In this document: one piece after another, positions 5,257-15,509 of the stretch
Numbering within the stretch: position 1 is the stretch's first letter
Layout of the letters: each line of letters starts with the position of its first letter
DNA from: an uncultured Pseudomonadota bacterium
Lineage (GTDB): Bacteria > Pseudomonadota > Gammaproteobacteria > Burkholderiales > SG8-39
Length of the DNA stretch: 64,000 nt
Reading direction: 5' to 3'
NCBI GenBank assembly: GCA_903834835.1
Contig: CAILKO010000046.1
Coordinates: forward strand, 1 to 64,000
Translations under genes and position numbers: made by a program
Notes under the pieces: generated by a model
What the model saw: the letters and a program-made list of their open reading frames with translations, nothing else
Database searches by the model: none
Told to the model about the DNA's origin: nothing

Positions 5257-5807
5257 TTTTCCCCCTCCTGTATCGAACATGGATTCCGGCCGAGCGAGCG
5301 GGGGCCATGCCGTCCGATACTGCGGACGAAATATGCAGGACGCCTGTACCTGTTGCAGGTCAGCACTCCCCCTCCCGATTTGCTTGCAGATTGCCGTTGT
5401 CCTCCTCGGAACAACGGACGGGCGACGCTACTCTGCGTGACCAGGCGTGTCAATGCACGGATCGAATGATCAGATGCGCTTCGCCGCGCGCACCGCCGGG
5501 GGCCGGGCAGCGCGTGCCGGCAGCCGAGCAGCGTGAGCGAGATCACGTGCGTCATCACACCGCCGATGATCATCAGGTCGCGCCTGCGGCCTAGGGTTGC
5601 CGGCACACCCGGTCGATTCGGCACCTGCGTCAACACGTTGCGGCCTTGACGCAGGCAGTAAGGCCGGCACTCCAAGAAGGAGCGGCATTGAATCGGATCT
5701 CGTCCTTGCGAGCACCGGTCAGTTAAAATGCGCCGATGCCTAGGGCCCAGGCGCTGTCGGGTCCCTCACGCCCGTGCGACAGAATCTATTGCCCGTTGAC
5801 AAGCCCC
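5257..5807. other. Intergenic region, no gene recognised
   Basis: About 550 bases separate the divergent Bug receptor and formyltransferase genes. The open frames here lack family resemblance or ribosome-binding sites. The region should hold promoters for both flanking genes. GTTAAAAT at about 5724-5731 is a possible -10 element for the plus-strand gene, but I cannot pair it with a convincing -35. Confidence 0.5.
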
Positions 5808-6506
5808 ATGCAAACTGTACTTGTCACCAGCCCGCCCCTGCGCAGGGAGGCCGGGGAAATGTTCCTCGAGCACTTTCCCAAGGGGGAGATCCTGGTTTGG
5901 CAGCATGGGGACCGGAGTGCGCGCGGGACCGTGCGCGAGAGGCTGCTGTCCCGCAAGTGGCAGCTATGTATTTCGTTCTACAACGACTATGTTTTTTCCC
6001 GGGAGGAGATCGTTGCGTTCGGCTGCGTCGTCAATATCCACCCGGCAATGCCCTTCCTGCGCGGGCGAGGCTACGACACTCTGCCGCTCATCGAGCAGCA
6101 TCGCGAACACGGCGCAACCCTGCACTTCGTGAGCGAGGAAATCGATGCTGGGGAAATCATAGAGGTCCTCGGGCAGCCAGTCCCACCGGGCATCAGCTAC
6201 CCTGAATTCAGAATCCGCACGCAAATGCTGTCGCTGGCCATGCTCGAACGTCTGTTGCTGCGCAGCCGGAACTCGCACGTCGGCGCGCTGAATCTCGATC
6301 TGAAACGCATGGCCGAGGCATGCGAATGGCGATGGAGTGGAGAGGCCGTAACCTCGGAAAAGCTGGGTGAGCTGTTGCGCGAACTGCGCCGCCGCGAGCC
6401 AGATCACCTGGCACTTCGGGACATCCCCTCGACCCTGGTACGTCACTGCGCGGAACCCCGGGCCGTCGATGCTCGCACCTCCGGGCAGGGCGCCGCACAC
6501 GAATGA
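5808..6506 (+). CDS. Formyltransferase-family protein
   Basis: From the ATG at 5808 the protein has 232 residues. It carries the formyl-transferase core: NIHPAMPFLRGRG corresponds to the catalytic Asn-x-His and the HPxxLPxxRG loop of methionyl-tRNA and GAR formyltransferases, and EEIDAGEII supplies the conserved Asp. It is shorter than methionyl-tRNA formyltransferase and lacks its C-terminal domain, so it more likely N-formylates a small amine, a sugar amine or a peptide. I chose 5808 because conserved sequence begins there (MQTVLVTSPP); the 5736 start adds unconserved residues, and neither has a strong ribosome-binding site. It converges on an ATP-grasp gene with a 1-bp gap. Confidence 0.75.
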   Translation: MQTVLVTSPPLRREAGEMFLEHFPKGEILVWQHGDRSARGTVRERLLSRKWQLCISFYNDYVFSREEIVAFGCVVNIHPAMPFLRGRGYDTLPLIEQHREHGATLHFVSEEIDAGEIIEVLGQPVPPGISYPEFRIRTQMLSLAMLERLLLRSRNSHVGALNLDLKRMAEACEWRWSGEAVTSEKLGELLRELRRREPDHLALRDIPSTLVRHCAEPRAVDARTSGQGAAHE

Positions 6507-6507
6507 T

Positions 6508-8331
6508 TCACCGCACCTCAGGACTGGCGTTCTCGTAGGGAAGGAATGCTTCGTCGAGCAGGGTATTCATGGTTGCTTCAGATACCTCGCGCGACATCGA
6601 GTCGATGTATCTGCGGCTGCAGCGCATCACAACTTCCCGCAGCGACATTGGCAGGGGTTCAAAACTCAAGCCCAAGTCGAATCTATCCAGCGGCAAGCCG
6701 GACGTCGCGACTTCCCGCACGCTCGTTTCGATGATTAACGCCTCGCATCCAGGATCCGAGACGAGGGCTGATACCCGCGCCGCCAGGTCCTCGTCGGGCC
6801 CGCACCGGACATGCCCCCCGAGAAACGTGGCCTGGGCGTCCGTGTGGCCGGCGGCGCGTCCCCGCGCGCCGATTGCCTCGCACATCCGCGCCCGAAGGCT
6901 TGCAGGCGGGTTGACAAGCAGCACGCTCGGAACACGGCCGGCTGATCCTGCGGGAAACTTGGCGTGCAGAATTTTTGCCGCACGAGAGTCGAAAAGGATC
7001 CCCGGCGTGCCGTTGACCTCGATGACGGCACAGGGCACATCACGCCAGGATCGGCTGATGTCTGGTGTCAGGAAGTCCACGCCCAGGGCGTCCATCCGGA
7101 ATCCCCGGGCGATGGCTTCCGCCATGTCGCGGTTGTCGGGGTGAATGCGATGCGTAACGTCAACGATCGAGCCGCCCCTAGACACATTGGCAACGCTGCG
7201 CAGGTTCACCGTCAGACCTTCGCGGGGACGGGTGGCCAAGGAGAAGCCCTGCTTCTCGAGGTGGCGGAGCATCTCCTGATCTGGTTCGATCGCAATCAGC
7301 CCTGCCTCTGCCGATTGCGCGTCCTCCCTGCGGCGGAGGTTTTCCCTTTCTATGAGGTCGGCGATCGAGGTGCGGCCGTCGCCTACGACGTTCGCGGGGT
7401 ACCGCGCTACGACCCATGAGAACGTGCCCCCGAAAACCGCTAGCCGGTGGTCCACGCCGGCGACATGGCGCTCCACGAGGACCCCTTGCGGCGAAAGCGC
7501 GGCAGCCTCGGCAAAAGCGATGCGAAGCTCTCCGGCCTCGACAACGTATGCAGAGACGCCTTTTCCCTTGCCGCTCGCGCGGGGTTTAACGACGACTGGA
7601 TAACCGTACTGCGCGGCGATCCGGATGGCCTCCGCCTCCCGCATCGCGACGGCGTGCGTCACCCCCGGAAAGCCAAGCCGACCGACTAGCCGATTAGCCC
7701 AGGTCTTGTCGCGCGCGAGGTTCATGCCGGTAAAGGAATCCCGGTCACTGCCGGCTTCGAGAAAATGAATTCCGGCCGCGCCTTGACCAAACTGCCAGAC
7801 CCGCGAACCCTCGGCCACGGGATAGACGGGTATTCCCTGTTTGCGCGCTTCGCGAATCAAGGTCCGTACGATAGGCGCCTGGGGCAGCCTGGACCGCAAG
7901 GTGACCCGCGCACGGCTCAGGGTGCCGGCTTGCCGCTCAGGGTGACTCGCTTCGCCTGATTCGGCCAGAAAAATACTTTCTGCCAGGACGATTGCGGTGT
8001 GCACGGCCATTCTGGAAGCCACGGGATCCAGGAATCCAATGGAGATCGAACAAGTTCCGCCAAATGCATGCGACACGATCCGCACCTGCGCGCTCTGTTC
8101 GTCTTCAGGGTGCTGGATCTTGACCGCCAGCGCGGCGGCGACGTTCGCGAACGAAAGCTGCACCTGCGGACGATTCTTGTCCCAAAGCGGTTCGTCATCG
8201 ATCAAGCGCCAGGTCGCCTCGACTGCCAAAGGCGATATGTCAAATCCGAATGGATTCTCGAAATCTGCAATGATGGCTGCGAACGGCGCGTGGATGTTTG
8301 GTCCATTGAATATTCGGAATCGGACGTTCAT
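6508..8331 (-). CDS. Cyanophycin-synthetase-like ATP-grasp ligase with eroded Mur domain (copy 1)
   Basis: The 607-residue protein resembles the first two-thirds of cyanophycin synthetase CphA. The N-terminus RFRIFNGPNIHAP matches the CphA opening (xxRGPN). An ATP-grasp domain spans about residues 200-450, with VVKPRASGKGKGVS at 247-260 and the Mg-binding EVNGTPG at 438-444. CphA then has a Mur-ligase domain with a GTNGKT P-loop. Here the matching place reads VNPPASLR (473-480), so the P-loop is gone, although IIETS and the following FDLGL still echo CphA. It is probably an ATP-dependent amino-acid or peptide ligase using only the ATP-grasp site. The ATG at 8331 is used because conserved sequence begins there; a TTG 13 codons upstream is possible. 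Confidence 0.75.
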   Translation of the reverse strand: MNVRFRIFNGPNIHAPFAAIIADFENPFGFDISPLAVEATWRLIDDEPLWDKNRPQVQLSFANVAAALAVKIQHPEDEQSAQVRIVSHAFGGTCSISIGFLDPVASRMAVHTAIVLAESIFLAESGEASHPERQAGTLSRARVTLRSRLPQAPIVRTLIREARKQGIPVYPVAEGSRVWQFGQGAAGIHFLEAGSDRDSFTGMNLARDKTWANRLVGRLGFPGVTHAVAMREAEAIRIAAQYGYPVVVKPRASGKGKGVSAYVVEAGELRIAFAEAAALSPQGVLVERHVAGVDHRLAVFGGTFSWVVARYPANVVGDGRTSIADLIERENLRRREDAQSAEAGLIAIEPDQEMLRHLEKQGFSLATRPREGLTVNLRSVANVSRGGSIVDVTHRIHPDNRDMAEAIARGFRMDALGVDFLTPDISRSWRDVPCAVIEVNGTPGILFDSRAAKILHAKFPAGSAGRVPSVLLVNPPASLRARMCEAIGARGRAAGHTDAQATFLGGHVRCGPDEDLAARVSALVSDPGCEALIIETSVREVATSGLPLDRFDLGLSFEPLPMSLREVVMRCSRRYIDSMSREVSEATMNTLLDEAFLPYENASPEVR

Positions 8332-8518
8332 TTCGCTTTTCCAGCTGTTCCGGATCGGAACTTGTTTCAAAGAACCTGCGCCGGTATGCCCTCCGCCCTA
8401 TGGACGCCAGGACACGAAGCTCAGCAACACGCTGTTGCGGAGAGCCAATCAGGAATCAAGCTGATATCCATCGCGCCAGACGACGGGCCCCCAGGGTGCC
8501 GGGCGCTCGTTCAACGGC

Positions 8519-10411: not shown

Positions 10412-11113
10412 ATGTCGCAGTTCAACTACAGGGCCCCGGATTTCAGGACCTCCTCGATCGAACTCGGAGACCGCCGCTGTCGGGTGATGTTCTCGCTGGC
10501 GCAGCCGCGGCTCGCCCTGGTCGACGGATTCATCGACGAGGCGGAGTCGCGCCATCTGCTTGCGTCCGTGGCCGGGGTCCTGGCGCCCGCTACGGTGTTC
10601 CGCGAGCAAAGCGGAGTGCGCGAAGTTTCGGAACTTCGCACCGGCTGGAGTGCGAAGCTTCCCAAGGGGGGCGATGAGGTCCTGCGCGGGATCGAGCGGC
10701 GCGCCGCCGTGCTGGCGGGTCTGGATGTGGCGCTGGCCGAGCCGGTCGAGGTGATCCGTTATGAGCCCGGCCAGCTGTACCGGCCCCACTACGACTGGTT
10801 CGACGCCGCCACGCCGGGCGGCCGGACGCGAATCGAGTCCATGGGCCAGCGGCTGGCGACCGTATTGATCTACCTGAGCGATGTGGCGGAAGGCGGCTCC
10901 ACACTATTCCCGGTACTGGGTCTGGATGTACGTCCCGCCAGGGGCCGCGCGCTGTTCTTCTCCAATGTGGATGACCGCGGTGAAACGGACAGACGCGTAC
11001 TGCATGGCGGAGCGCCAGTCGTAACGGGGTGCAAGCAGATCGCGACCTGCTGGTTCAGCAGCAGGCGGGAGCGGCAGTCCCTGGGTCCCGGTCAGGCAGC
11101 TTCCGAAGTGTAA
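10412..11113 (+). CDS. Prolyl-4-hydroxylase-like 2-oxoglutarate/Fe(II) dioxygenase
   Basis: The 233-residue protein has the full catalytic set of the prolyl 4-hydroxylase family: iron ligands H126-x-D128 (YRPHYDW) and H198 (VLHGG), plus the 2-oxoglutarate-binding K208 (GCKQ). Bacterial members hydroxylate proline or other residues in peptides and proteins. No signal peptide is visible, so it should act in the cytoplasm. It lies beside the HExxH gene (convergent, 22-bp overlap) and 1.1 kb from a small peptide gene whose tail is rich in adjacent prolines, which suggests the peptide as a substrate. That link is inference. TAGAAT at about 10400 is a possible -10 element. Confidence 0.85.
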   Translation: MSQFNYRAPDFRTSSIELGDRRCRVMFSLAQPRLALVDGFIDEAESRHLLASVAGVLAPATVFREQSGVREVSELRTGWSAKLPKGGDEVLRGIERRAAVLAGLDVALAEPVEVIRYEPGQLYRPHYDWFDAATPGGRTRIESMGQRLATVLIYLSDVAEGGSTLFPVLGLDVRPARGRALFFSNVDDRGETDRRVLHGGAPVVTGCKQIATCWFSSRRERQSLGPGQAASEV

Positions 11114-12090
11114 GGCTCCATGTAGGCAAGCGCTCCGTCAAGCAGCTGCTGCCCGGTTGCCGACAACTGCGCGTGCGCGCGCAGGGTCGCGTAGCCGGCG
11201 CTGAAATTGCGCGCGTCCGTTTGCATTCTGGCGGACGCTTCGTCGGCCTCGGATGCGGAGAGCTCACCCGATGCGAGCAGGCGCGACATCGTCCAGTGCA
11301 TGCGGGCGGATACGAATGTGGCGTGATAGATGCCATCCATGGGGCGCAGATCATCGCGCAGCGGCGATGCAAAGCGTTGTGTCCCCGCATCGAGCACCAG
11401 CGGCTCGTCGACCGTGAAACCGAATAACAGACTGTGCGCGCTTTCGTGGGCGATCGCCTCCATCAATTCGATATCGCCCCGATGGGCGCCGACATTGATG
11501 AACAGCGCTCCCCAGAGCATGTAGCAGGAACCGCCGGCAAAGTCGTAGCCGATCGCTGGATCGCCCGAGACAAGAATCACCTCGCGGATGATGGCCTCAA
11601 ACTCGTCGACGGTTTCCGGCACCGCAGCCCGCAGGCGCTTGAGGGCGGAGGCGAAGGCGCCGACGCTCGCGGCGCCCAGCCCGGCTGGCGGTGCGACGAT
11701 GCGGAACGGGGTCTCGGGATCGGTGTCCATGAGCCGTCGATAGCGCGCCTGTTGATTCCGCGGCATCTGGTCGAACGTGACGATGCTCAGGGTGCGGTCC
11801 TCGAGCATAGGCGCTCCCGCAAGCTCGTCCAGCAGCGCCAGGCCGGGCCCGACGTCGTTGCCGAGCAAGGCACTGGTCGCCTCGTAGTAAAGGCCGAACA
11901 TGGACGGGGAGGCGAGTCCCGCGCGACCCAGCAGCTCGATGCGCGTCGTCAGCGCTCCTGGCAGCGACCGGCCCGAGTTCTCCAGGGATTGCCCGATGTG
12001 TGCGAGGCTCTGGGCAAGCTGTTGCCGCATGCGCAGGTCCAGCGCGAGCGCGCGTGCGGGATCGGGGGGAAAGTGCAGCGAGGGGAGCAT
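11092..12090 (-). CDS. HExxH-motif peptide-modification protein
   Basis: The 332-residue protein carries H215-E-S-A-H219 in the setting EAIAHESAHSLLFG, with DEP soon after and a further His at 256. This arrangement is typical of the HExxH putative peptide-modification family found in RiPP loci (TIGR04267 type). Some family members fused to radical SAM enzymes have been shown to be Fe(II)/2-oxoglutarate beta-hydroxylases rather than proteases. The N-terminal 200 residues are helical with few landmarks. It is the first gene downstream of the peptide gene at 12182-12328 on the same strand, separated by a hairpin. There is no good ribosome-binding site before the ATG at 12090, so the start is less certain than the family. 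Confidence 0.75.
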   Translation of the reverse strand: MLPSLHFPPDPARALALDLRMRQQLAQSLAHIGQSLENSGRSLPGALTTRIELLGRAGLASPSMFGLYYEATSALLGNDVGPGLALLDELAGAPMLEDRTLSIVTFDQMPRNQQARYRRLMDTDPETPFRIVAPPAGLGAASVGAFASALKRLRAAVPETVDEFEAIIREVILVSGDPAIGYDFAGGSCYMLWGALFINVGAHRGDIELMEAIAHESAHSLLFGFTVDEPLVLDAGTQRFASPLRDDLRPMDGIYHATFVSARMHWTMSRLLASGELSASEADEASARMQTDARNFSAGYATLRAHAQLSATGQQLLDGALAYMEPYTSEAA

Positions 12091-12104
12091 GGGACAGGAA
12101 TTAA

Positions 12105-12136
12105 ACAGGCCGAATGACTTGCGTCAGTCGGCCTGT
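12105..12136 (-). terminator. Hairpin between peptide gene and HExxH gene (partial terminator or processing site)
   Basis: ACAGGCCGA and TCGGCCTGT form a perfect 9-bp stem, with an inner TGAC/GTCA pairing after a one-base mismatch. In the direction of transcription it is followed by TTTAATT, a weak U-rich run. Between a RiPP precursor and its first enzyme such a hairpin would let most transcripts stop after the precursor, giving much more peptide than enzyme. Confidence 0.6.
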
Positions 12137-12181
12137 GGGTCATGCATGCGCGATCATCGTTGAAGCAACCGCCAGCCGGAC

Positions 12182-12328
12182 TCAGGGAGGAGGCGCCTTC
12201 CCGATCTTTGCACCGAGTACGGCAGGTGGCACTTTGCCGATCTTGGCGCCAATCTGCACGAATCCGGCACGGGGCACCAATTTGAATCCCAGCAGCTTGC
12301 TGGCGTCCAGTTGGATGGTTCGTTGCAT
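12182..12328 (-). CDS. Candidate RiPP precursor peptide, 48 residues with repeated core
   Basis: A short gene with a good ribosome-binding site (AAAGGA, 6 bases before the ATG). The product starts MQRTIQLDASKLLGFKLVPR and continues with AGFVQI, then two near-identical units: GAKIGKVPP (27-35), AV, LGAKIGKAPPP (38-48). The gene ends on the last proline. A non-repetitive N-terminal half with an LxxxKLLGFKL helix and a repeated C-terminal half is the usual leader/core pattern. It is flanked by a peptide-modification (HExxH) gene downstream and an ATP-grasp gene transcribed divergently 81 bp away. Cys, Ser and Thr are absent from the core, so thioether, oxazole and ester chemistry are excluded; Lys, Ile and Pro remain as modification targets. 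Confidence 0.7.
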   Translation of the reverse strand: MQRTIQLDASKLLGFKLVPRAGFVQIGAKIGKVPPAVLGAKIGKAPPP

Positions 12329-12409
12329 GGCTGTTCCTTTCGTTTGAATGAAAAGCATTGCAGAAGCCCCGCAAGTCTAAACTCAAGTGCGGGTCCACGG
12401 ATACAGTTT
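12329..12409. promoter_or_regulatory. Divergent control region between peptide gene and ATP-grasp gene
   Basis: Only 81 bases separate the two divergent starts, so both promoters must lie here or inside the genes. An inverted repeat CCCGCA...TGCGGG (12368-12393) with an inner AGT-CTAA-ACT symmetry sits 17-42 bases before the ATP-grasp start and could be an operator. I cannot assign -35/-10 pairs with confidence. Confidence 0.35.
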
Positions 12410-14245
12410 ATGACCAGGTTTCAAGCGTCGATGTTCGGATACATGCATCGTGGATTGCGCCAACCCGCGTGTGCACTGACGCTCCGGCTGCGACTTTCTC
12501 AAGACGTCGACTTTGCGCATCTGGACGGGCTCATGTACCGCCTGTTCGAGCTCGACGCCAGTCACGCGAACGATGCGCCGCCGACGGACGACACGCAGGC
12601 GGGGAAGCTGGCCTGGCGCGTGTTGTTGCTGGGGCGTTACCTGCGGCAGGCGGCTCGGATCCCCGCATTCGATCTCGGCGTAGTGCAGGGTGTGAGCGAG
12701 ACGGCCGGCGATCACCCGGAATTCCATGTGACGCTTCTGGTCCCTGCCCTCGACGGACTGAGTCTCGCCGACAACCGTCGCCCTTACCATGCTGCGGCAT
12801 GGACCGTCTCCCGGTTGCTGGCAAGCCCTGGAATTCCTGATCCACAAACCTTGTTCGCGAGCCTGGACAAGGATGTCGTGCGGCCGATGCGAGCCCTGTC
12901 CCAGTCCGGCGTGTCGACGCTCCCCATATTGCGCGCTGCACACGCAGCGGAGATTCCGTTTCGTCACCTGGGGGGCGGCTATTACCTGCTGGGACAAGGC
13001 TGCCGAAGCACAAAAATACGCGCGAGCGCCGTGCAGGCCGACTCGGGTCTGGGCTTCCGCATTTCTCAGGACAAGTTCCAGACGGCGGAACTGTTGCGAT
13101 CGGCGGGGTTACCGACTCCGGTTCATCAGCTGGTACGAAGTGAGGAGCAGGCTTTGCAGGTCGCGCGAGACCTCGGCTGGCCCCTGGTTGTGAAACCGGC
13201 TGATCGAGACCGAAGCGAGGGCGTCTCGGTTCACATACGCGACGATGCAGCGCTCCTCGCAGCCTACGGCAAGGCGGTCGCGATATCGCGCAATGTGCTC
13301 GTCGAACGTGAGGTGCCCGGGATCTGCTACCGCCTGCTGGTCGCGAACGGGGTGTTCCAGTATGCGATTTCCCGCAAGCCCGTCGCGATTGCCGGTGACG
13401 GCAACATGAATATCAGTCAGCTCATTGAAAAGCGTCTGGCAACAGATCTGCAGCGCCCGCACTGGCGTCGCAACAAGCCTATTTCTCTGGATGCCGCGAC
13501 GGTCGAGGCGCTTCGTGCTCAGGGCCTTCATGAGAGTTCCGTCCCCGGCATGGGCACAAAAGTGGCATTGCGACTGATCGAATCATCCGAATGGGGCGGT
13601 GATGTTGAAGATGTAAGCGACCTTGTGCACTCGACGAATATTTCGCTCGCGGAGCGCGCCGCCCGGCTGCTCGGACTCAGCACGGCGGGCATCGACATGA
13701 TCTGCACCGACATCGCCCGTCCGTGGAATGAAAGCGGCATGGTGATCAACGAAGTGAACTACTCGCCGTATTTTGGTGGAAATCCGATCGCGCAGGCTCG
13801 GCTGCCGGGCTTTCTCGAGGGTCTTGTCGAAGGCGACGGTCGAATTGTCGCGGAACTCTTCGTGGGGGGACCGCAGGCTCTCCAGAAGGCGCGCAGACGT
13901 CAACAGGCGTTGATGGAAAAAGGGCAACGCGCATACCTGACCAGCCATGATCTCACTCTGGGGCCGGAGGGATCGGAAATGCCGGTTGCGGCACAGGGGC
14001 TGTTCGATCGCTGCATCGCGTTGCAACTGGATCCGTGCGTGGAGCGGATGCTGATTGTTGTTCAGACCACGCAGTGGTTGCTTACCGGCATGCCTGTGGA
14101 TCGCGTTCACGCAATCGAAGTTTGCGAGGGGGCAGTTCTTGACGATACGCCGGCCGGCGTGGCGGATGAGGCAACACAGGACAAGCTTCTTGCTATGCTG
14201 AGAACGTTCCTCTGCCTCGACGCGAACGTCCTCAAGCCGGGTTAA
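12410..14245 (+). CDS. Cyanophycin-synthetase-like ATP-grasp ligase with eroded Mur domain (copy 2)
   Basis: The 611-residue protein is a divergent paralogue of the gene at 6508-8331. Its ATP-grasp domain covers about residues 215-470: QDKFQTAELLRSAGLPTP (the subdomain entrance), VVKPADRDRSEGVS at 260-273, VEREVPG at 298-304 and the Mg-site NEVN at 447-450. The N-terminal 200 residues correspond to the CphA N-domain but lack GPN. The last 130 residues correspond to the start of a Mur-ligase domain without any GxNGKT P-loop. It therefore probably ligates an amino acid or peptide carboxylate to an amine using ATP. The start at 12410 (MTRFQASMFG) has a weak ribosome-binding site; 12431 is an alternative. 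Confidence 0.75.
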   Translation: MTRFQASMFGYMHRGLRQPACALTLRLRLSQDVDFAHLDGLMYRLFELDASHANDAPPTDDTQAGKLAWRVLLLGRYLRQAARIPAFDLGVVQGVSETAGDHPEFHVTLLVPALDGLSLADNRRPYHAAAWTVSRLLASPGIPDPQTLFASLDKDVVRPMRALSQSGVSTLPILRAAHAAEIPFRHLGGGYYLLGQGCRSTKIRASAVQADSGLGFRISQDKFQTAELLRSAGLPTPVHQLVRSEEQALQVARDLGWPLVVKPADRDRSEGVSVHIRDDAALLAAYGKAVAISRNVLVEREVPGICYRLLVANGVFQYAISRKPVAIAGDGNMNISQLIEKRLATDLQRPHWRRNKPISLDAATVEALRAQGLHESSVPGMGTKVALRLIESSEWGGDVEDVSDLVHSTNISLAERAARLLGLSTAGIDMICTDIARPWNESGMVINEVNYSPYFGGNPIAQARLPGFLEGLVEGDGRIVAELFVGGPQALQKARRRQQALMEKGQRAYLTSHDLTLGPEGSEMPVAAQGLFDRCIALQLDPCVERMLIVVQTTQWLLTGMPVDRVHAIEVCEGAVLDDTPAGVADEATQDKLLAMLRTFLCLDANVLKPG

Positions 14246-14300: not shown

Positions 14301-15509
14301 TCATCGAGCGATTCCTCCCTGCTTCCCGTGCCACAGCCAGAACGCGCTCCCGAGGAGCAGCAGCGTTGCAATCGCGTTGGCCCAGGTGATCGCATCCCAG
14401 CCGGCCCAGCGCAGATCGCCGAGCGTGCGCACGAAGATGGGTCCGATGATCTGGCCGGTGGCGAAGGCCATCGTCATCCGGGACAGCAGCGCCGTCGGGA
14501 AGGCGGGCGCAAGTTCGCGCCCGAGCTGCAGGCTCGCCATCGTGGCGACCATGAAGGTGCCGCCGACGAAGAGCGCGGAGAGCGCGAGCGACCATAGCGC
14601 GTGGCTGGCGAGCGGCAGCAGGGTGCCGAGCGCCATCGCGCAGTGCGCGAGCGCCCACAGACGCCGGCGCGGCCAGCGCGCGCACCAGCGCGCCGCGATG
14701 CCGACCGAGACTGCGGCGGCGAGGCCGAAGATCGGCCAGGTGAGACCGAACACGAGCGGATCGGAAACCTGCTCGCGCGCCATCGCCGGAAGAAAGGTGG
14801 CGGGCACGATGTAGCCGAAGCCGGTCGCGCCGTAGCACAGCACCGGCATCAGCGTGACCCGTATCGGTATCGATGCGGGGATCGATGCGGCGGATCGGGT
14901 GTCCGCGGCCGCTGCGGGTGCGCTGCGCGGCAGGCGCAGCCACACATAGAGGCTCCCGGCTGCGGCAAGCAGGCCGAGTTCGAACCAGATGAGCGCAGCG
15001 GATTGTCCGCCGCCGAACCAGGTGAGCAGTCCCGTCCCGGCGACGCCGAGCCCGACACCGGTGTAGATCCATGCGCCGAGCGCGGCCACCTGGCGGCGCG
15101 CGAGTTCTGCGAGGCACCAGCCGCTCGTCGTCACGATCGCGAGTCCGCTGGCAACGCCGGCCGCGTAGCGCAGCAAGGCCCCGACGAGGGGATTCGATCC
15201 GCCATCCAGCCAGGCCACGGGAGGCGTGGCAAGACAAACGCCTGCTAGCGCGATCAGCAGCCCGCGGCGCGGCTGCCGCGCGAAGAACGATGCGCCGATC
15301 GCCCCGCAGAGCGCGCCGAGATAGTTCGCTGCCGCCCATTCCGCGCCGGTCGCGCTGTCCAGTGTGCCGTCGCGCAGCATCAGCGGGAACATGGGCGTGA
15401 AGGCGAAGCGGCCGATGCCCATTGCGATGGCGAGCGCGATGCAGCCCATGGCAACGATGGTCCAGTCGGACGCGTCGGGCTTCCTTGGCGCTGGGGTGGA
15501 GGGGGTCAT
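14301..15509 (-). CDS. YbfB/YjiJ-family MFS transporter
   Basis: The 402-residue protein shows about 12 hydrophobic segments in two halves of six. It carries the family signature near the N-terminus (GIGRFAFTPMFPLML), like E. coli YjiJ and YbfB. It is an inner-membrane carrier of unknown substrate. Its stop lies 56 bases from the stop of the second ATP-grasp gene, convergent with it, so it may export a peptide product, but many members of this family sit in unrelated contexts. It is divergent from tctC at 15644. Confidence 0.8.
   Translation of the reverse strand: MTPSTPAPRKPDASDWTIVAMGCIALAIAMGIGRFAFTPMFPLMLRDGTLDSATGAEWAAANYLGALCGAIGASFFARQPRRGLLIALAGVCLATPPVAWLDGGSNPLVGALLRYAAGVASGLAIVTTSGWCLAELARRQVAALGAWIYTGVGLGVAGTGLLTWFGGGQSAALIWFELGLLAAAGSLYVWLRLPRSAPAAAADTRSAASIPASIPIRVTLMPVLCYGATGFGYIVPATFLPAMAREQVSDPLVFGLTWPIFGLAAAVSVGIAARWCARWPRRRLWALAHCAMALGTLLPLASHALWSLALSALFVGGTFMVATMASLQLGRELAPAFPTALLSRMTMAFATGQIIGPIFVRTLGDLRWAGWDAITWANAIATLLLLGSAFWLWHGKQGGIAR

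What the first reader, a model, noticed from the sequence alone, without database searches (positions are those of the whole stretch)
10412..14245. Candidate new RiPP locus: short repeat peptide with two hydroxylase-type enzymes and a CphA-like ATP-grasp ligase
Within 3.9 kb are a prolyl-hydroxylase-like dioxygenase with a full HxD-H-K set, an HExxH peptide-modification protein, a 48-residue peptide gene with a strong ribosome-binding site and a duplicated core, and a divergent cyanophycin-synthetase-like ATP-grasp protein. HExxH proteins of this kind are found in RiPP loci, but I know of no described system that pairs one with a CphA-like ligase and a prolyl hydroxylase. A convergent MFS carrier (14301) could export a product. 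The peptide, its place and the enzymes are seen directly; their joint action is inference.
Basis: partly seen in the sequence, partly recalled or inferred. Interest (0 to 1): 0.9.

Follow-up and report, generated by a model that had tools for sequence, protein, structure and literature searches.

The report
New peptide-modifying cassette with cyanophycin-like ligase
A tiny lysine-glycine repeat peptide, an iron hydroxylase and an ATP-grasp ligase related to cyanophycin synthetase or to RimK recur together in distantly related bacteria, which points to an undescribed class of modified ribosomal peptides in which a storage-polymer enzyme was recruited for peptide tailoring.

Summary
I examined 22 HExxH loci, the window included. 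In 16 a short peptide with one leader, [ILV]xLDxxKLLGF or close, lies just upstream of the HExxH gene, followed by a fast-changing core, mostly rich in GxK. Two more have a KVGGGKG core behind another leader. A peptide profile hit 6 of 369 genomes at E<=0.01, all HExxH-positive; 0 of 362 HExxH-negative genomes were hit.

An ATP-grasp ligase stands beside the HExxH gene in 18 of 22 loci: CphA-like in 7 or a RimK-fold protein in 11, never both. The locus-associated CphA-like ligases form a clade (99/99).

The prolyl-hydroxylase-like gene and the MFS carrier were found in none of the 21 other loci, so they are probably not part of the module.

This is most likely a RiPP cassette: leader/GxK peptide, alpha-KG HExxH hydroxylase, amide ligase. 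The product is inferred: the ligase may join an outside amino or carboxylic acid to core Lys amines, or extend the C-terminus. I found no description in the open papers searched. Verdict: real and probably new; chemistry untested.

The parts
12182..12328 (-). Precursor peptide, 48 aa: leader MQRTIQLDASKLLGFKL, core with two GAKIGK(V/A)PP repeats; no D or E after the leader
   Evidence: relatives; no Pfam or NCBIfam match
11092..12090 (-). alpha-ketoglutarate-dependent HExxH peptide beta-hydroxylase (HESAH and a SPLRxDxRPxDGIxHA block)
   Evidence: TIGR04267, 103 bits, cut-off 40; ChlH 8s5f E 1.8e-10; alignment A1
12410..14245 (+). CphA-like ATP-grasp ligase, 611 aa, no Mur-ligase match; in a clade of HExxH-locus ligases
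12329..12409 (.). 81-base divergent intergenic region, presumably with promoters for the peptide operon and the ligase
   Evidence: sequence; the promoters are inference
12091..12181 (-). Peptide-HExxH spacer with a hairpin (AGGCCGA/TCGGCCT arms) followed by GTTTAATT; possible attenuating terminator
   Evidence: -22.8 kcal/mol, 15 shuffles mean -16.0, lowest -24.3, so not beyond chance by energy; hairpins with T-runs lie at the same place in L039, L021, L040, L042
10412..11113 (+). 2OG-Fe(II) oxygenase (prolyl-hydroxylase-like), tail-to-tail with the HExxH gene (22-base overlap); probably not part of the conserved module
   Evidence: no hit in the 21 other loci or in 40 other family genomes
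14301..15509 (-). MFS carrier (YbfB-like, PF06779); neighbour, not conserved with the module
   Evidence: no tblastn hit in the 21 other loci

Best explanation
This is a biosynthetic cassette for a ribosomally made, post-translationally modified peptide (RiPP). The short peptide is the precursor. Its N-terminal [ILV]xLDxxKLLGF block is the recognition leader, and the Lys/Gly repeats are the core. The HExxH enzyme (Fe(II), alpha-ketoglutarate) hydroxylates core residues, perhaps at beta carbons of Lys or of the Ile/Val next to it. The ATP-grasp protein makes amide bonds on the peptide with ATP. The most likely single reaction is activation of an outside amino or carboxylic acid and its transfer to Lys side-chain amines of the GxK repeats. 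Shown here by sequence: the peptide, its leader and core, its specific linkage to HExxH plus ligase, two ATP-grasp types in one slot, and a clade of locus-associated CphA-like ligases. Inferred: leader function, hydroxylation sites, acyl donor and acceptor, cleavage by proteases encoded elsewhere. My split on the ligase: Lys acylation 0.4 (lowered from 0.45 on recheck, because L071's core has no GxK), C-terminal extension 0.3, ring closure with a carboxylate 0.12, other 0.18.
For: Peptide with shared leader beside HExxH in 16 of 22 loci. Leader conserved while the core varies in length and repeat number; L021 has two tandem precursors with the same first 19 residues and different cores. Profile specificity: 6 of 369 genomes at E<=0.01, all HExxH-positive, 0 of 362 HExxH-negative; G421 is an independent hit. 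HExxH family score over its cut-off, homology to ChlH. Ligase in 18 of 22 loci, 7 CphA-like and 11 RimK-like, never both. Linkage survives rearrangement: in L020 the CphA-like gene lies downstream and convergent, not upstream and divergent. Locus-associated CphA-like ligases form a clade (99/99) apart from nine paralogue rows of three genomes, including the window's own gene at 6508-8370. The RimK-like partner is an ATP-grasp fold (RimK 7qys: Z 18.3, rmsd 3.5, 256 aligned). For Lys acylation: GxK is in all 18 cores counted (62 against 18.1 expected), and repeats imply several equal sites; no D/E after the leader in the window core and none at all in the L040 precursor. L071 has leader and HExxH with an A-PCP-TE protein instead of the ligase, a type that activates small acids (recalled). 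Precedent: a RiPP Lys amine is carbamoylated and that residue then beta- and gamma-hydroxylated (PMC13174530, passages).
Against: No product, mass shift or substrate was measured. The best-known relatives of both ligases (CphA, RimK, LysX/ArgX) extend a peptide at a carboxylate, not at a Lys amine. In 4 of 22 HExxH loci no such peptide was recognised (L025, L045, L072, L073), and in 4 of 22 neither ligase was found (L025, L071, L072, L073). L071's core has no GxK and 9 D/E; 9 of the 18 precursors counted have one or two D/E after the first GxK. The CphA-like gene of L039 appears frameshifted. I saw no protease or exporter shared by the loci, but did not search for them systematically. HExxH hits of this kind are rare (2-3% of genomes).
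Confidence: 0.7

Rival explanations
1. [quoted passage not shown]
For: The two alternative ligases belong to, or resemble, the ATP-grasp groups best known for C-terminal extension: CphA1/CphA2 by sequence and fold, RimK/LysX/ArgX by fold. CphA1's C-terminal chemistry is stated in PMC9262961 (passage); RimK's is recalled.
Against: C-termini of the 18 precursors counted are not conserved (APPP, KVGN, KAPL, ISPA, PKNV, RKPK and others), while GxK is in all 18. A C-terminal reaction does not explain the repeats. The A-PCP-TE protein of L071 would not be expected to activate a peptide C-terminus (recalled).
Confidence: 0.3
2. The ligase closes a ring between a Lys side-chain amine and a carboxylate, chiefly the C-terminal one: a graspetide-like macrolactam.
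For: PsnB, a graspetide ligase, is among the fold matches of the RimK-like partner (Z 14.9). Lys is the common nucleophile. 9 of 18 precursors have one or two D/E after the first GxK.
Against: The other 9 of 18 have no D/E after the first GxK, the window core has none after the leader, and the L040 precursor has none at all, so in these only one ring, to the C-terminus, could form. C-termini are variable.
Confidence: 0.12
3. The prolyl-hydroxylase-like protein is a true third enzyme of the pathway, hydroxylating the PP/PPP of the window core.
For: It overlaps the HExxH gene tail to tail. Both genes are rare in this family (dioxygenase in 0 of 40 other genomes; no same-family genome among the HExxH hits). 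The window core has PP and PPP.
Against: No hit in the 21 other HExxH loci, among them L039, seen 7 kb each way, whose core also holds KAPP; L018 (core with KPP) cannot tell, as its contig ends inside the HExxH gene. Elsewhere in 3 of 18 host genomes, two on another contig than the HExxH gene and one (G666) of unknown linkage.
Confidence: 0.12
4. The peptide is an unrelated small basic protein or a chance frame and the enzymes act on something else.
For: Short peptide without database match; Lys/Gly-rich frames can arise by chance.
Against: Shared leader just upstream of HExxH in 16 of 22 loci, tandem duplication with identical leader, 0 of 362 HExxH-negative genomes hit at E<=0.01.
Confidence: 0.04

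Closest known systems
alpha-KG HExxH peptide beta-hydroxylases (TIGR04267): ChlH/ChlBH, BpmH, PflC/PosC, the nitrilobacillin enzyme
   Same: The HExxH gene is over the family cut-off and homologous to ChlH; it stands beside a short precursor
   Different: Those that I read of are paired with radical SAM, MNIO, MNIO-nitroreductase or AS-like enzymes (PMC12636437, first of six parts; PMC13060819, abstract), not with CphA- or RimK-like ligases
Cyanophycin synthetases CphA1 and CphA2
   Same: ATP-grasp domain, fold and E-x-N motif; length like CphA2 (611 aa against 629 and 642 for PDB chains)
   Different: Far below the CphA model cut-offs (229 of 877 bits), no Mur-ligase match, clade apart from the paralogues of three genomes, tied to a ribosomal peptide and an HExxH gene
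RimK / LysX / ArgX ligases
   Same: Fold of the alternative ligase in the sister loci (Z 18.3)
   Different: 17% identity, no Pfam match where scanned, partner is a RiPP-like precursor
Graspetides (microviridin and relatives)
   Same: ATP-grasp ligase acting on a ribosomal precursor
   Different: No acidic residue in the window core or the L040 precursor; the ligases find CphA and RimK first
PEARL and other scaffold-peptide pathways
   Same: Non-ribosomal amide bond added to a ribosomal peptide
   Different: PEARLs use aminoacyl-tRNA at the C-terminus (PMC11962472, search listing)
std homocitrulline RiPP
   Same: Proposed logic: modify the Lys amine, hydroxylate the same residue
   Different: Uses a carbamoyltransferase and an MNIO (PMC13174530, passages)

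Membership tests
alpha-KG HExxH peptide hydroxylase (TIGR04267) | Score over the curated cut-off | tested here: met
   103 bits, cut-off 40
alpha-KG HExxH peptide hydroxylase (TIGR04267) | HExxH motif plus SPxRxDxRP block | tested here: met
   invariant in 8 of 8 rows of A1; aligned to ChlH
alpha-KG HExxH peptide hydroxylase (TIGR04267) | alpha-KG-dependent hydroxylation of a peptide | not testable with these tools
   needs enzymology
RiPP biosynthetic cassette | Small precursor gene with conserved leader and variable core next to a modifying enzyme | tested here: met
   16 of 22 loci
RiPP biosynthetic cassette | Peptide modified and released | not testable with these tools
   no product data
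Cyanophycin synthetase (CphA1) | ATP-grasp plus Mur-ligase domain, score over model cut-off | tested here: not met
   229.4 of 877 bits and 213.1 of 850 bits; no Mur_ligase match
Cyanophycin synthetase 2 (CphA2) | Single-site polymerisation of beta-Asp-Arg | not testable with these tools
   fold match 7ta5, E 4.8e-28, but the reaction is untested
Graspetide | Core Asp/Glu side chains to be joined to Ser/Thr/Lys | tested here: not met
   window core 0 D/E; L040 precursor without any D/E; 9 of 18 precursors do have D/E after the first GxK
Lasso peptide | YxxPxLxxxG leader with lasso protease and cyclase genes | tested here: inconclusive
   only the side subtype L023 has such a leader (NF033528, E 0.017, 15.1 of 33 bits); lasso enzymes were not searched for

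The most novel reading that the evidence does not exclude
The ribosomal peptide is a primer. The CphA-like (or RimK-like) ligase grows untemplated poly-amino-acid chains on it, from its Lys side chains or its C-terminus, so that the product is a ribosomal/non-ribosomal hybrid polymer with a hydroxylated, repeat-encoded backbone: cyanophycin chemistry anchored to a genetically coded scaffold.
Probability: 0.1. Interest if true: 0.92.

Novelty: new variant of a known kind. Interest (0 to 1): 0.72.

Why it matters
It links the cyanophycin synthetase family, known for storage polymers, to ribosomal peptide tailoring, and defines a precursor family (leader [ILV]xLDxxKLLGF, core mostly GxK) by which such clusters can be found. 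Two different ATP-grasp types filling one slot offer a natural experiment on what the ligase must do. Two of the precursors are only 36 residues long, so the chemistry is directly testable in E. coli.

Tried and rejected
Three-enzyme pathway with the prolyl hydroxylase: rejected as a conserved feature. MFS exporter as part: no hit in the 21 other loci. Graspetide side-chain rings: rejected for the window and L040 on missing acidic residues, not for every relative. Repeated ligase swapping on the HExxH tree: not shown; one clade for five CphA-type loci among 14 is not rejected (AU p 0.307), and the 22-row tree has long branches. Scans of genome contigs: with the CphA-like protein no confirmed relative, with HExxH two. 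Plasmids: HExxH relatives in 4 records (Pantoea, two Xenorhabdus, Photobacterium); the two that I opened show an MFS gene and no annotated ligase. RimK-like relatives in 2 records (Paracoccus in a polysaccharide locus, Deinococcus) without annotated HExxH, so that family is wider than this module. Dropped: L016 and L017 (weak HExxH hits; no tblastn hit). Pseudomonas sp. N040 (L019) has no CphA-like match at E<=1e-20. Literature: searches listed no paper that I could see pairing an HExxH RiPP enzyme with a CphA- or RimK-like ligase; the library is open-licence PMC only, so this is not proof of absence.

Hairpins between peptide and HExxH were folded in 14 of 22 loci only. T-runs after a hairpin are clear by eye in L039, L021, L040, L042; weaker or none elsewhere. 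In the window and L021 the energy lies within 15 shuffles; L019 equals its shuffle mean; L068 and L069 show nothing.
Full report
What is there. The window (contig C46 of a 3.37-Mb, 74-contig genome) holds, around 12.3 kb, a 48-codon gene on the minus strand (12182-12328), followed on that strand by an HExxH gene (11092-12090), with a 611-aa CphA-like ATP-grasp gene (12410-14245) divergent from it. A prolyl-hydroxylase-like gene (10412-11113) runs tail to tail into the HExxH gene, overlapping by 22 bases. The HExxH protein is over the cut-off of TIGR04267, named by NCBI an aKG-HExxH-type peptide beta-hydroxylase, and finds ChlH in the PDB (E 1.8e-10).

Relatives. HExxH searches gave hits in 9 of 300 (E<=0.001), 7 of 369 (E<=1e-10), 7 of 399 (E<=1e-15) and 8 of 398 genomes (E<=1e-12); the window's genome is counted each time and the samples overlap. 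Two named relatives came: a Burkholderiaceae MAG (L018) and Pseudomonas sp. N040 (L019). I examined 22 loci including the window: six (two weak hits, L016 and L017, dropped), two, seven, six. Five lie in another class of the same phylum (L068-L072), the other unnamed ones in the window's class. By the genus codes given, only L039/L041 (one genome, G333) and L068/L070 share a genus; L018 and L019 bear no codes. No other genome of the window's family was among the HExxH hits.

The precursor family. In 16 of 22 loci a short frame upstream of HExxH starts with the leader [ILV]xLDxxKLLGF or a close form (L043's copy was read on an overlapping contig). Examples: L018 with four GAK(I/V)GK copies, L039 with four GAKI(G/A)K copies, L020 and L019 with a KxGx rhythm, L068 and L070 with KMGGKGG. 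L021 has two tandem precursors whose first 19 residues are identical and whose cores differ. L071 has the leader but an LGRLFSKRG repeat with no GxK and 9 D/E. Two more loci, L023 and L024, have another leader (APYG; in L023 a lasso-like YxxPxLxxxG) and a KVGGGKG core; I chose these frames among several by that core. In L025, L045, L072 and L073 I recognised none. A profile of 12 precursors (A4) searched in 369 genomes of the class (the same sample, as far as the handles shown tell) hit six at E<=0.01, all among the seven HExxH-positive ones; none of the 362 others was hit at that level, and two weak hits at E 0.023 and 0.077 look like chance. Five of the six positives supplied rows to the profile; G421 did not.

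The ligase slot. By tblastn at E<=0.01, a CphA-like ATP-grasp gene lies beside the HExxH gene in 7 of 22 loci (window, L018, L020, L023, L024, L039, L042) and a second protein, without a Pfam match where scanned (L019, L022), in 11 (L019, L021, L022, L040, L041, L043, L044, L045, L068, L069, L070); no locus has both, four have neither. The model of the second protein (pLDDT 85.9) matches RimK with Z 18.3, rmsd 3.5 over 256 residues, and its C-terminal part holds a VYEINTNP-like motif as in ATP-grasp enzymes (the motif is recalled). So two ATP-grasp kinds fill one slot. The four loci with neither hold a YcaO and a ThiF protein (L025), an A-PCP-TE protein (L071), a stand-alone AMP-binding enzyme (L072) or nothing of the kind that I saw (L073). 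Among the 16 loci with the shared leader, 5 have the CphA-like, 10 the RimK-like and 1 (L071) the A-PCP-TE protein.

The CphA-like protein itself. By profile it reaches CphA1 (7wac, E 3.8e-69) and CphA2 (8fxh, E 2.2e-60) in the PDB; its model (pLDDT 73.0, pTM 0.57) matches CphA1 (7wae, E 3.5e-31) and CphA2 (7ta5, E 4.8e-28) (whose titles name 7ta5 and 8fxh as CphA2). It is far under the CphA model cut-offs and has no Mur-ligase match. On a tree of ATP-grasp domains the locus-associated copies (nine rows; L039 in two pieces, L024 with two copies, one fused to an AMP-binding enzyme) are separated with 99/99 support from nine paralogue rows of three genomes, including the window's own 6508-8370 gene. 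A wider sample of CphA proteins was not tried.

What it most likely does. The leader would dock the enzymes; the HExxH enzyme hydroxylates the core; the ligase adds something by an amide bond. The core offers Lys amines in GxK (62 occurrences in 18 cores, shuffles 18.1 +/- 3.5; L071 adds none). Acids are few: none after the leader in the window, none at all in L040, none after the first GxK in 9 of 18, one or two there in the other 9. Side-chain rings of graspetide type are therefore excluded for the window and L040, not for all. Repeats imply several equal sites, which favours Lys acylation by an outside acid over a single reaction at the variable C-terminus. L071's A-PCP-TE protein may point the same way, but its core is different. 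Against this, CphA and RimK are known for C-terminal extension (CphA1: PMC9262961, passage; RimK: recalled, and the titles). I put 0.4 on Lys acylation and 0.3 on C-terminal extension. A precedent for Lys-amine modification followed by hydroxylation of that residue is the std pathway (PMC13174530, passages). Hairpins with T-runs between precursor and HExxH genes in four of the 14 loci folded suggest that precursor is made in excess there, as is usual for RiPPs (recalled).

What does not belong. The 10412 dioxygenase and the MFS gene gave no tblastn hit (E<=0.01) in the 21 other loci; several loci are cut short by contig ends, L018 inside its HExxH gene. The dioxygenase was found in 1 of 41 family genomes, the window's own, and away from the HExxH gene in 3 of 18 other HExxH-locus genomes searched (G021 and G996 were not; linkage in G666 unknown). 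A private accessory role is open.

Known or new. The HExxH RiPP enzymes that I read of work with radical SAM, MNIO, MNIO-nitroreductase or AS-like partners (PMC12636437, part 1 of 6; PMC13060819, abstract); Pseudomonas Os17 has a nitrile-hydratase-type precursor with GNAT, HExxH and SagB-type proteins (PMC7726476, passages). Ten literature searches listed nothing on a CphA- or RimK-like ligase with an HExxH RiPP enzyme; subscription papers are not in that library. I file it as a new RiPP class: new variant of a known kind.

Noticed in passing
window 6508-8370 (-) and 5736-6506 (+): A second CphA-family ATP-grasp protein (620 aa), grouping with L005 (own genome) and L038 (100/98, long branch), stands convergent to a formyltransferase-like gene (PF00551, 24.8 of 26.1 bits); function unknown.
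   Followed up: partly
L024 9214-12531 (-) and 1769-5011 (+): An AMP-binding enzyme fused to a CphA-like ATP-grasp domain of the locus-associated clade, and a separate ATP-grasp plus Mur-ligase protein, around one HExxH locus.
   Followed up: partly
L071 4467-8206 (-): Leader peptide with LGRLFSKRG repeats and HExxH gene next to an A-PCP-TE protein instead of an ATP-grasp ligase: possible RiPP/NRPS hybrid.
   Followed up: partly
L025 996-7027 (+): HExxH gene followed by a cupin/JmjC protein, a possible MFS transporter (not scanned), a ThiF protein and a YcaO protein: another RiPP-like cluster.
   Followed up: no
L039 5191-6917 (-): The CphA-like gene is split over two frames in a one-contig genome: frameshift or sequencing error; the same genome has a second HExxH locus with the RimK-like ligase (L041).
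   Followed up: no
L079 5734-8063 and L080 5869-7980: Plasmid-borne HExxH genes of Xenorhabdus and Pantoea with an MFS gene next to or just beyond them and no annotated ligase: a different HExxH system.
   Followed up: no
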